From contig JAPOXR010000049.1 in assembly GCA_026706985.1 (NCBI GenBank), forward strand, positions 1-64,000: a stretch of DNA of 64,000 nucleotides. The letters are read 5' to 3'. A model generated the notes under the pieces. The model did no database searches, was not told the origin of the DNA, and was given only the letters and a program-made list of their open reading frames with translations. The stretch comes from Paracoccaceae bacterium. Its GTDB lineage: Bacteria > Pseudomonadota > Alphaproteobacteria > Rhodobacterales > Rhodobacteraceae. Below, piece after piece: positions 31,285 to 35,491 of the stretch. The stretch's first letter is position 1. Each line of letters opens with the position of its first letter. The position numbers were made by a program, and so were the translations under genes.

Positions 31285-32769
31285 ATGTCACTCGAATCGA
31301 TTCATGTGCCAGCAAATAGATCGTTGGCTCCGAAAATTTGTGTCTTCGGTGTCGGGGGTGCCGGATGCAGTGCGGTCAAGACAATGATGTCTCAGGGTCT
31401 TACCGGGGTTGAGTTTGTTGTTGCGAATACAGATGCACAGATCCTGCAGGAACTTGAGGGCGCGACGAGAATACAATTGGGCCTGAATGTCACCCAGGGA
31501 CTTGGGGCCGGGGCGGATCCCAAAGTCGGCAAATTGGCGGCCGAGGAAAGCGCGGACCTGATCAGGGAACAGCTTGAAGGCGTTCACTTGACTTTTGTTA
31601 TGGCCGGCATGGGCGGAGGCACCGGAACCGGTGCCGCGCCGGTGGTTGCGAAAATCGCCTGCGAAATGGAAGTGCTCACTGTCGGTGTTGTAACCAAACC
31701 TTTCGGCTTTGAAGGCGAGCAGCGTATGTCGGTCGCACAGTCCGGGGTTCAGGAATTGCGCAACAATGTCCATACCAGTGTCGTGATTCCCAATCAGAAT
31801 CTGTTTCAGTTGACCAATGAACGGACACCATTGGACGATGCGTTCGGAATGGCGGATGATGTTCTGATCGAGGGTGTGAAGAGCATTACCGAACTGATCA
31901 TGCGGCCGGGCCGGATCAATCTGGACTTTGCCGATGTGCGCACCGTGCTGATGGAAATGGGTTCGTCGATGTTGGGAACGGGCGAGGGCGAAGGTGAGGA
32001 CCGGGCAAAGGTCGCTGCCAACCGGGCCATGTGCAACCGGTTGCTGGAAGACACCAAGCTCGAACATGCGAAAGCGGTTCTGATCAGCGTTACCGGCGGA
32101 GCCGACCAGGGCCTGTTTGATCTGCATGATGCTTCCGAGGAAGTCCGGAAAAATGTCGGTCCGAACACGCAGTTGATTGTGGGTTCGACGATTGATCCGG
32201 AATATCAAGGTCGGATCAAGGTTTCGCTCATTGCCTCCGGAATGGGGAGGGGAGCGGCCTCCTTCGACTTCCCCGTGGACGAGGCCGCCGGGTCAAGCAC
32301 CTGGATTTCGGATCATCAAGCCGAGGAGCAACCGGAGGAAGAGGAATTTCCGGAAGGTGACTTCCAGCCGCATAACGCCGCGTGGCCGCATGCCGAGGAT
32401 CAGCCCGAAATCGCTGAATCCTCAACGCCGGAAGTGGCCGACACAGAAGTTGACGTGCCACAGGATGTCGAGGAGGAGGCGGGTGCCAAATCCAATGGTC
32501 GTTGGAGCCGGGCCTTTGTCGCACCGAAGCTTTCGCCGAATGAGGCAAGCGGGGAATCATCCGCGCCATCACCTGCCGCACCGCGTTCGGGCAACCCGTT
32601 GGTCAGCGCCATCAGGCGCATGACATTCGGTTCAGACTCCAGGGAAAGCAACCTGACTGACAAAACCCGGGACCCGGCATTGCAGTCAAGGGTTGAGGCA
32701 CCGGAAGATCATCCTGACAGTGAGGAAGAGCGCCGGATTCCAGCATTTATGCGCCGGCAAGCCAACTGA
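31285..32769 (+). CDS. ftsZ: Cell division protein FtsZ
   Basis: CVFGVGGAGCSAVKTMMSQGLTGVEFVVANTDAQ, GMGGGTGTGAAPVVAK, C-terminal RIPAFMRRQAN peptide. Confidence 0.98.
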   Translation: MSLESIHVPANRSLAPKICVFGVGGAGCSAVKTMMSQGLTGVEFVVANTDAQILQELEGATRIQLGLNVTQGLGAGADPKVGKLAAEESADLIREQLEGVHLTFVMAGMGGGTGTGAAPVVAKIACEMEVLTVGVVTKPFGFEGEQRMSVAQSGVQELRNNVHTSVVIPNQNLFQLTNERTPLDDAFGMADDVLIEGVKSITELIMRPGRINLDFADVRTVLMEMGSSMLGTGEGEGEDRAKVAANRAMCNRLLEDTKLEHAKAVLISVTGGADQGLFDLHDASEEVRKNVGPNTQLIVGSTIDPEYQGRIKVSLIASGMGRGAASFDFPVDEAAGSSTWISDHQAEEQPEEEEFPEGDFQPHNAAWPHAEDQPEIAESSTPEVADTEVDVPQDVEEEAGAKSNGRWSRAFVAPKLSPNEASGESSAPSPAAPRSGNPLVSAIRRMTFGSDSRESNLTDKTRDPALQSRVEAPEDHPDSEEERRIPAFMRRQAN

Positions 32770-32793
32770 TTGCCGGAGGTGCCCTTCGGCAAT
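32769..32793 (+). terminator. Possible hairpin terminator after ftsZ
   Basis: ATTGCCG ... CGGCAAT inverted repeat directly at the ftsZ stop codon; no strong T-tract. Confidence 0.3.
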
Positions 32794-33238
32794 CGGGCTT
32801 CATTTATCATCTGCTCCGCAACGAAGGGCGGACAACCGGCAGGTTTTCAGGCAGTGCCTTGATACGGTTTCGAGAAGCACTTCGGAATTCAAAAACAGTG
32901 TGCTCAGGCGCGTACGTCGACGGGCGGATTCGACCTCAGGCATGTGGTTGTTGACGGCATGACCGCGCTGACCCGTCAGGAAGCGAATGGGATCAGGTGC
33001 GTGTTTGTCTACCCTCTACATTTAGTTAGAACGTTGCGCAAAGAGTAGCGCAGGCAAAAAAGAAACAGGAAAGCCGGCATATCGTTTCAAGCGATGGAAA
33101 ATGGGTTGCCCTCAATCCGTTCCAGCTTATCCACAGCCACCTTCTGGTTCCTTCCCGATTCTCAACGCGTATGGGGCGCATCGCCTTGCGCGGGGACAAC
33201 TGCCTTCGTAAGGGAAGCGGGTGCAGGAGAGAGTAGCG

Positions 33239-34753
33239 ATGAGCAAAAAAGCAGTTGAAGGCTCACTTGAACTCGAAATCACTGATTTTGGGCCTATCGC
33301 CCGGGCAAAGGTCGACCTGCGTCCGCTGACGGTGTTCGTCGGGCCAAGCAACACAGGTAAATCCTATCTGGCAATCCTGATATATGCGCTTCATCGATTT
33401 TTCGGGCAAGAAAATGACTATTTTTACCGGCGTTTACGTAATGCCATAGATCCGGAAGATCCGAAAATGAAGGACCTGTCCGATCAGAGCTTCAGGAATT
33501 TCCAAGAAATTGTGGACTCCATAGAAGATGTATCACCTGGTGATATTGGCAATGTCACACTAACCCCTGCATCTGCTGAAGCTCTCCGATCATTTCTTGA
33601 TAAGAATGCAGAAGCTCTGGCCAGCGAAATTGGGCGGTGCTTTGGCCTTGGCGAAACTCGTGCTCTTACCCGAAAGGGAAGGCCACATGCTCGTATCGCT
33701 ATGCGTCGACGAATGTCCAATGATTCGGAATTCGGGGAACATACGTTGACACTCGGACGCAAGACCGAATTCAAGACAGCAATTCCCTCAGGGATTCCAA
33801 TACCGTTCGACTACGAAACGAATACGTTTCCGAGGAGATATTTTCTCGAGCAATATAAAGGAACTGGCAGACGGAAAGTTACCAGCCGACAACGTCGCAT
33901 TTTGGAACGGGATATAATGTCGATTGTCAGCAGCCTGTTGATGCCTTCTGCGGTTGGTATTCTGCAATTGCCAGCGTTCTACCTGCCGGCGGATCGTACC
34001 GGCGTGATGCACGCGCACAATGTCGTGGTCAGTGCCTTGATTGCAAGTGCACCATCAGCCGGTTTTCGCCCGGCCGCCCGAACACCTATGCTTTCCGGGG
34101 TGCTGGCGGACTTTCTCGAACAGTTGGTCGGTATCGGCCTTCCCGAACCGTGGCAGCGAAAAACTCAATCGGATCTTGGTAAGAGAATAGAGGAGAGTGT
34201 ACTTAAAGGGTCAATCCGCATCGACCGTGCGGCGACCACTGATTACCCAAGCTTTGCTTACCGACCTATAGGTTGGAACGACGATTTAGCGCTGGCAAAC
34301 GCGTCGTCCATGGTTTCAGAACTTGCACCTGTGGTTTTGTATCTCCGTCATCTGGTCAAAACCGGCCACATTTTGATCGTAGAAGAGCCGGAATCACATC
34401 TCCATCCGGCGATGCAGGTCGAGTTTACCCGCCAGCTTGCTGCACTTGTCGATAGAGGAATTCACCTGATTGTCACCACCCATAGCGAGTGGCTGCTTGA
34501 AGAGCTGGCCAACATTGTACGACGTTCCGAACTCAACAAACATAAGCGCAGCGATTTTGTCAGCGACGTCGCACTTCGTCCTGAACAGGTTGGAGTATGG
34601 CTGTTCGAGCCCAAGTCACGACCGAAGGGATCGATCGTCAAAGAAATTCGACTGGATAGCACCGGAACGTATCCTACAGACTATGACGAAGTTGCTGAGG
34701 CACTGCATAACGATTGGGCCGAGATCACAAGTCAAATCGGGAATGGTTCGTGA
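33239..34753 (+). CDS. AAA/ABC-like (OLD-type) ATPase, accessory gene inserted between ftsZ and lpxC
   Basis: Walker A FVGPSNTGKSYLAILIYAL; signature-like LANASSMVSELAPVVLYLRHL; Walker B HILIVEEPESHLHPAMQVEF; VTTHSEWLLEEL H-loop. Confidence 0.88.
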   Translation: MSKKAVEGSLELEITDFGPIARAKVDLRPLTVFVGPSNTGKSYLAILIYALHRFFGQENDYFYRRLRNAIDPEDPKMKDLSDQSFRNFQEIVDSIEDVSPGDIGNVTLTPASAEALRSFLDKNAEALASEIGRCFGLGETRALTRKGRPHARIAMRRRMSNDSEFGEHTLTLGRKTEFKTAIPSGIPIPFDYETNTFPRRYFLEQYKGTGRRKVTSRQRRILERDIMSIVSSLLMPSAVGILQLPAFYLPADRTGVMHAHNVVVSALIASAPSAGFRPAARTPMLSGVLADFLEQLVGIGLPEPWQRKTQSDLGKRIEESVLKGSIRIDRAATTDYPSFAYRPIGWNDDLALANASSMVSELAPVVLYLRHLVKTGHILIVEEPESHLHPAMQVEFTRQLAALVDRGIHLIVTTHSEWLLEELANIVRRSELNKHKRSDFVSDVALRPEQVGVWLFEPKSRPKGSIVKEIRLDSTGTYPTDYDEVAEALHNDWAEITSQIGNGS

Positions 34754-35235
34754 CGGTTTTTTTGGACCGGGTTCGCAGCAAGTTGAATTGCAAATGTCTG
34801 GTCAAAAGCGGTTTGAACAAAAACGGGTGCAAGATCTCGATGGCGAATGCACCAAGTTTACGTTTGGTCGTTGACTTCGACAAACCGGGGTCACCGCTGC
34901 CCTCAAACTCGACACGCTGTGACTATCTCGTGATTGCTGAAGATGCGCGGGGTTCAGGTTTGATCATGCCGCTTGAATTGAAGCGGGGAAGTCTGGATGC
35001 GGGTCAAGTCATCAAGCAGTTACAAGCCGGGGCGCAGGCAGCAGAGGGACTCGTTCCCAAAGGCGGGTCCGTCAGTTTCCTCCCGGTCGTTGCCTCAGGG
35101 TCAATAAAGAAGCATGAACGCATTAGGCTGAGGAAAAGAGGCACAATCCGGTTTCGCGAGCATTATAAACCGGTCCGGCGTATTTCGTGTGGTGCACGAT
35201 TGGTCGATGCGGTTGATGCGATTAAGGAAAAGTGA
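34750..35235 (+). CDS. Hypothetical protein translationally coupled to the ATPase; possible PD-(D/E)xK-like nuclease core
   Basis: GTG start overlaps the ATPase stop (GTGA, 34750-34753); RCDYLVIAEDARGSGLIMPLELKRGSLDAGQVIKQLQAG fits D-(x)n-ExK followed by a helix. Confidence 0.72.
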   Translation: MTVFLDRVRSKLNCKCLVKSGLNKNGCKISMANAPSLRLVVDFDKPGSPLPSNSTRCDYLVIAEDARGSGLIMPLELKRGSLDAGQVIKQLQAGAQAAEGLVPKGGSVSFLPVVASGSIKKHERIRLRKRGTIRFREHYKPVRRISCGARLVDAVDAIKEK

Positions 35236-35491
35236 TTGTTGCACGTGTTGGGTTTATCTCGTCCGTCGGCCCTGTGGCTTGGATCGCATGGCTTATAGCG
35301 CATTACCTGACACACGAATTACTTTCCTTTGGAGCCGGTGGTGATTCAAGGTGTGTCGGGAGAGGTTTGCTGGAGCGTCCATCCCATCAATTTATTGCCC
35401 TGTACTGCAACATATTGTTTCAATTCTTAATTTGAACACAAGGTGGGCAATTGTTACGAGTTCGGGTGAGCAAAGTATCAGGCGTTTACTC

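What the first reader, a model, noticed from the sequence alone, without database searches (positions are those of the whole stretch)
34750..35235. Partner protein carries a possible PD-(D/E)xK nuclease core and is GTGA-coupled to the ATPase
The partner's GTG start overlaps the ATPase TGA stop (GTGA), implying translational coupling. It contains RCDYLVIAEDARGSGLIMPLELKRGSLDAGQVIKQLQAG: Asp, then a hydrophobic strand with E-L-K, followed by a helix with Q, which fits the minimal PD-(D/E)xK pattern. A nuclease effector would make the ATPase the sensor/regulator.
Basis: partly seen in the sequence, partly recalled or inferred. Interest (0 to 1): 0.65.

Follow-up and report, generated by a model that had tools for sequence, protein, structure and literature searches.

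The report
ATPase-gated PD-(D/E)xK nuclease defence pair

Summary
A GTG start at 34750 overlaps the ATPase TGA stop (GTGA, 34750-34753), and the peptide with D58, E76-L-K78 and Q90 is where stated. The motif alone is weak: 54% of shuffles of the protein contain it. Conservation makes the case. In 28 operon partners from distant bacteria, plasmids and a phage, D44 and D58 are invariant, position 76 is always E or D, and K78 is present in 26. Partner genes picked only because they sit beside ATPase relatives match the nuclease profile in 8 of 9 cases. An AlphaFold2 model (pLDDT 92) gives the expected core, and the top 12 PDB fold matches are all PD-(D/E)xK enzymes, though with weak E-values. The ATPase is an OLD/PtuA-like ABC ATPase. 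The pair belongs with PADLOC's candidate PDC-M47 and the proven anti-phage system PD-T4-4, and resembles V. cholerae WonAB. It is inserted between ftsZ and lpxC, which are adjacent in congeners. Most likely mechanism: the ATPase senses infection and licenses a nuclease that halts the cell, probably by cutting RNA. This is a divergent member of a known kind. The most interesting side finding is a sister branch in which the catalytic lysine is replaced by S/T and a conserved GRxK follows.

The parts
33239..34753 (+). OLD/PtuA-like ABC-type ATPase, sensor/regulator subunit, 504 aa from the ATG at 33239 (in-frame GTG at 33221 is upstream of an AGGAGA-like ribosome site)
   Evidence: Pfam AAA_15 8e-22, AAA_21 6e-13; PADLOC PD-T4-4_A 6.9e-35, PDC-M47A 4.9e-26; AF2 model, Foldseek top matches PtuA
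33341..33364 (+). Walker A GPSNTGKS
   Evidence: sequence and alignment A6
34382..34408 (+). Walker B / catalytic Glu EEPESHLHP
   Evidence: E383, P384, E385 and L388 (numbered from the ATG) invariant in 17 ATPases
34475..34486 (+). H-loop TTHS
   Evidence: T413-S416 invariant in 17 ATPases
34750..34753 (+). GTGA stop-start overlap
   Evidence: sequence; ATGA or similar overlaps in homologous operons
34750..35235 (+). PD-(D/E)xK nuclease-like effector, 161 aa
   Evidence: AF2 pLDDT 92, pTM 0.88; Foldseek; profile matches
34879..34881 (+). D44, invariant acid upstream of the core motif
   Evidence: 27/27
34921..34923 (+). D58, the Asp of the PD motif
   Evidence: 27/27
34975..34983 (+). E76-L77-K78, the (D/E)xK motif at the end of the second core strand
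   Evidence: E/D 27/27, K 25/27; strand 70-78 in the model
34999..35052 (+). helix 84-101 carrying Q90 (Q 23/27, K 4/27)
   Evidence: AF2 secondary structure, alignment
32770..35488 (.). insertion region between ftsZ and lpxC; in three congeners ftsZ and lpxC lie about 130-370 bp apart
   Evidence: third-position GC of ATPase 0.49 and partner 0.57 against 0.62-0.65 for ftsA, ftsZ, lpxC, bamD and recN

Best explanation
The two genes are an anti-phage pair. The first encodes an OLD/PtuA-like ABC ATPase that most likely dimerises on ATP and acts as sensor and switch. The second, translated by stop-start coupling so that it stays in proportion to the ATPase, encodes a small PD-(D/E)xK nuclease whose metal site is D58, E76 and K78 (D44 probably assisting). 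Without infection the ATPase holds or restrains the nuclease. On infection the complex becomes active and stops growth, most likely by cutting a host RNA needed for translation, as inferred for WonAB. Shown here: operon, coupling, conserved motif, predicted fold, and common ancestry with PDC-M47/PD-T4-4 partners. Inferred: nuclease activity, complex formation, infection sensing, and RNA as the target (about 0.5 on its own).
For: D58, E/D76 and K78 are conserved over partners many of which share about 20% identity or less with the window protein. The AF2 model is confident and the top 12 PDB fold matches are PD-(D/E)xK nucleases. A profile of the window clade matches a profile of all other partners at 95.9% probability, E 6e-9, with D, E and K in register; P0002 scores 2e-6 against 1,000 shuffles and the window's other ORFs. 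Eight of nine partners found only through ATPase similarity match the nuclease profile, so linkage of the two families is deep. The ATPase hits PD-T4-4_A at 6.9e-35; plasmid relatives are true PD-T4-4 (L063 partner 6e-108 to PD-T4-4_B). WonAB, described with the same architecture, protects against phage, needs WonA ATPase residues and WonB K71, and stops translation without DNA breakdown (PMC12137116).
Against: The Foldseek E-values are weak (best 9e-3). P0002 itself matches PDC-M47B only over residues 54-95 at 5e-4 and does not match PD-T4-4_B. No defence island, integrase or other defence gene was noticed in the gene map of the window (not scanned systematically). Two close relatives lack the lysine. 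RNA as target rests wholly on WonAB.
Confidence: 0.82

Rival explanations
1. The pair is a defence system, but the nuclease cuts invading DNA (restriction-like) rather than host RNA.
For: Closest fold matches are DNA enzymes: BsmI, EndoMS/NucS, EcoO109I, Bse634I.
Against: In WonAB the chromosome stays intact and translation stops (PMC12137116). PtuA-type ATPases, the closest fold of the sensor, also serve tRNA cleavage: Septu cleaves tRNA-Tyr (abstract of PMC13096335).
Confidence: 0.3
2. Classical toxin-antitoxin pair, with the ATPase as plain antitoxin that sequesters the nuclease.
For: Tight coupling and a predicted toxic second product.
Against: WonB alone is not toxic without WonA; sensor-first gene order and an ATPase with all ABC motifs intact fit activation rather than mere neutralisation.
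Confidence: 0.1
3. The partner has a PD-(D/E)xK fold but no catalysis and serves as a nucleic-acid-binding subunit.
For: L005 and L018 lack the lysine, so part of the family may be non-catalytic.
Against: In the window protein all three residues are intact, and they are retained at about 20% overall identity, which implies function of the site itself.
Confidence: 0.08
4. The pair has a housekeeping role tied to cell division or lipid A synthesis because it lies between ftsZ and lpxC.
For: Position in the division gene cluster.
Against: Absent from three congeners, where ftsZ and lpxC are adjacent; found in 3 of 385 class genomes and 2 of 106 family genomes; relatives sit at unrelated places, on plasmids and in a phage.
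Confidence: 0.04

Closest known systems
PDC-M47 (PADLOC candidate phage defence pair, PDC-M47A + PDC-M47B)
   Same: Same gene order, ATPase match 4.9e-26, partner core D...ExK...Q aligned
   Different: Window partner is shorter and lacks the helical insert (FW... in L006-L009) after the core helix; only about 12-21% identical to the PDC-M47B-type partners, PADLOC match confined to residues 54-95
PD-T4-4 (E. coli anti-phage system, PMC9519451)
   Same: ATPase best hit is PD-T4-4_A (6.9e-35); partner family joined through intermediates, 13 of 19 partners hit PD-T4-4_B
   Different: Window partner does not hit PD-T4-4_B directly; the enterobacterial plasmid and Vibrio phage partners have D instead of E in (D/E)xK
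WonAB of V. cholerae WASA-1 (PMC12137116), placed by its authors near 'OLD-ABC ATPase + novel REase'
   Same: OLD-type ABC ATPase followed by a small PD-(D/E)xK protein of similar size (16 kDa with K71; here 161 aa with K78)
   Different: No direct sequence comparison was possible (WonB not held); activity unknown for the window pair
Septu (PtuAB) and retron PtuAB
   Same: Closest solved folds of the ATPase
   Different: PtuB is an HNH nuclease; the partner here is PD-(D/E)xK-like
OLD, Gabija GajA, PARIS AriA
   Same: ATPase superfamily
   Different: No Toprim domain found in the window pair; the nuclease is a separate PD-(D/E)xK-like protein

Membership tests
PD-(D/E)xK superfamily | Conserved D...(D/E)xK | tested here: met
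   D58 27/27, E/D 27/27, K 25/27
PD-(D/E)xK superfamily | Mixed alpha/beta core with the motif on the central strands followed by a helix | tested here: met
   AF2: strands 37-42, 59-64, 70-78, helix 84-101, strands 108-110 and 113-116; pLDDT 92
PD-(D/E)xK superfamily | Significant structural match to solved members | tested here: inconclusive
   Top 12 PDB hits all PD-(D/E)xK enzymes but best E 9e-3, TM about 0.3
PD-(D/E)xK superfamily | Metal-dependent nucleic acid cleavage | not testable with these tools
   needs biochemistry
PDC-M47 / PD-T4-4 | ATPase of the A family directly upstream | tested here: met
   PD-T4-4_A 6.9e-35, PDC-M47A 4.9e-26
PDC-M47 / PD-T4-4 | Partner matches PDC-M47B | tested here: met
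   PDC-M47B 5e-4 over residues 54-95 only; clade profile against family profile E 6e-9
PDC-M47 / PD-T4-4 | Partner matches PD-T4-4_B directly | tested here: not met
   no hit at E up to 10; linked only through intermediates
PDC-M47 / PD-T4-4 | Anti-phage activity | not testable with these tools
   needs plaque assays
WonAB | OLD-type ABC ATPase motifs (Walker A, signature, Walker B, H-loop) | tested here: met
WonAB | Sequence homology to WonA and WonB | not tested
   WonAB sequences were not found in the collections that could be searched
WonAB | Translation block on activation | not testable with these tools
   needs experiment
Septu (PtuAB) | HNH nuclease partner | tested here: not met
   No HNH family hit in P0002; PD-(D/E)xK-like model
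OLD / Gabija / PARIS | Toprim nuclease domain (in OLD and GajA fused to the ATPase) | tested here: not met
   Only AAA_15, AAA_21 and a sub-threshold DUF2813 in Pfam; no Toprim in either protein

The most novel reading that the evidence does not exclude
The alphaproteobacterial branch to which the window pair belongs includes a natural switch of the nuclease active site: in L005 and L018 the lysine of ExK is T or S, and a conserved G-R-x-K follows 4 to 7 residues after the Glu, suggesting that the catalytic basic residue moved. The branch would then be a test case for how ATPase-gated immune nucleases rewire or lose catalysis.
Probability: 0.3. Interest if true: 0.45.

Novelty: new member of a known kind. 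Interest (0 to 1): 0.35.

Why it matters
It links a compact, rare alphaproteobacterial pair to PD-T4-4, the PADLOC candidate PDC-M47 and, by architecture, WonAB, and shows that one partner family runs through all the loci examined except one phage. That supports the proposal that these are one large class of ABC-ATPase sensors with nuclease effectors, and it names residues (D44, D58, E76, K78) for direct tests. The lysine-less sister branch gives a natural experiment on catalysis.

Tried and rejected
Direct searches with P0002 in plasmids and six viral-contig scans with members of the pair or the family found nothing. PDB sequence searches found no relative of the partner. Pfam and NCBIfam do not name the partner. 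No flanking repeats marking an insertion were found. The sigma-70 promoter scan found nothing. The Krishnan 2020 survey is not held. A housekeeping role beside ftsZ was rejected because the pair is absent from congeners.

Full report
Observation. The window is contig C75 of a 3.1 Mb genome. By the order of its genes (mur/fts cluster, ftsZ, lpxC, bamD, recN) and its relatives it is alphaproteobacterial (my inference; one close relative, L002, is a Rhodobacter MAG). Between ftsZ (31285-32769) and lpxC lie two genes. The ATPase ends TGA at 34753; the partner starts GTG at 34750, so they overlap as GTGA. Relatives keep the coupling: ATGA in L005, L018 and L068, and overlaps or near-contacts in most others. 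The better ATPase start is ATG 33239, behind an AGGAGA-like ribosome site.

Chance. The proof has to come from conservation and fold.

Conservation. Closest partners: L002 and L004 (54%), L005 (36%), L018 (38%), and L068. The PADLOC PDC-M47B family found more in the same phylum, and a profile added others. An independent set came from ATPase similarity only: for nine plasmid and phage ATPase relatives I took the next gene, whatever it was. Eight of nine match the nuclease profile with 35 to 132 bits; the exception is Vibrio phage L9-1. The Acinetobacter ATPase hits annotated DUF3696 were not examined. In the 27-row alignment D44 and D58 are invariant, position 76 is E (22) or D (5), K78 is K in 25, and Q90 is Q in 23. 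E replaced by D is what (D/E)xK allows. With the window clade held out, the profile of all other partners finds P0002 at 2e-6 above shuffles, and profile-profile comparison gives 95.9% probability and E 6e-9 with the motif in register.

Fold. AlphaFold2 on 19 sequences gives pLDDT 92 and pTM 0.88; D58 sits just before strand 59-64, E76 and K78 end strand 70-78, and helix 84-101 follows. Foldseek against the PDB gives no E below 1e-3, but ranks 1-12 are BsmI, EndoMS/NucS, EcoO109I, Bse634I and Cdn1, and FokI and HamA follow. That these are PD-(D/E)xK enzymes is general knowledge. I take the fold as well supported but not proven.

ATPase. AAA_15/AAA_21, best defence matches PD-T4-4_A 6.9e-35 and PDC-M47A 4.9e-26. 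Walker A, the catalytic Glu region and the H-loop are intact, and a conserved SS-V--L stretch fits the signature. The model (pLDDT 74) is closest to PtuA of Septu and retrons, then SMC and Rad50 heads. No Toprim domain was found.

Context. In three congeners ftsZ and lpxC lie 130 to 370 bp apart with no room for the pair. The ATPase and partner have lower third-position GC (0.49, 0.57) than ftsA, ftsZ, lpxC, bamD and recN (0.62-0.65); murB is also low, so this is weak. No repeats mark the insertion. The branch is rare: 3 of 385 class genomes, 2 of 296 order genomes, 2 of 106 family genomes, the window's own genome counted in each. In the ATPase tree the five alphaproteobacterial members form one clade (100/100) on a long branch.

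Known relatives. The partner family joins PDC-M47B (17 of 19 members) and PD-T4-4_B (13 of 19). PD-T4-4 is an anti-phage system (PMC9519451), and E. coli plasmid relative L063 is a true PD-T4-4 by its partner (6e-108). WonAB of V. cholerae has the same architecture: an OLD-type ABC ATPase and a 16 kDa PD-(D/E)xK protein. ATPase residues and nuclease K71 are needed for defence, WonB is toxic only with active WonA, DNA stays intact and translation stops, and the authors suggest an rRNA or tRNA target (PMC12137116). The mechanism given here is carried over from WonAB by analogy of architecture, with family homology to PD-T4-4 tested; WonB sequence homology was not tested.

Sister branch. L005 and L018, sister taxa in the ATPase tree (95/92), have T or S in place of K78 and share a downstream G-R-x-K. 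Their ATPases are intact. Either the basic residue moved or catalysis was lost. The window protein keeps the canonical site.

Verdict. The finding is a divergent new member of a known kind.

Noticed in passing
L005 1495-1977 (-) and L018 1474-1968 (-): Close relatives whose ExK lysine is T or S, with a conserved GRxK just downstream and intact ATPase partners; possible relocated catalytic residue.
   Followed up: partly
L059 2287-4415 (Vibrio phage L9-1): An ATPase relative followed by a 336-aa partner that does not match the nuclease profile, near a cytosine methyltransferase gene: possible different effector.
   Followed up: no
L065 555-5062 (Serratia plasmid P2): A shortened ATPase (233 aa) plus nuclease lies between two inverted copies of the same recombinase-family and hypothetical genes, like a composite mobile element.
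   Followed up: no
L058 1316-5079 (Vibrio phage 1.202.O): The ATPase-nuclease pair sits between the CI repressor and the gene annotated DNA breaking-rejoining enzyme of a P2-like phage, i.e. it looks like phage-borne cargo.
   Followed up: partly
window 32770-35488: The ftsZ-lpxC interval is 2.7 kb long against 130-370 bp in congeners, with no flanking repeats or integrase.
   Followed up: yes
window 34879-34881: D44 is invariant in all 27 aligned partners although it is not part of the classical motif; probably a further metal-site or structural acid.
   Followed up: partly
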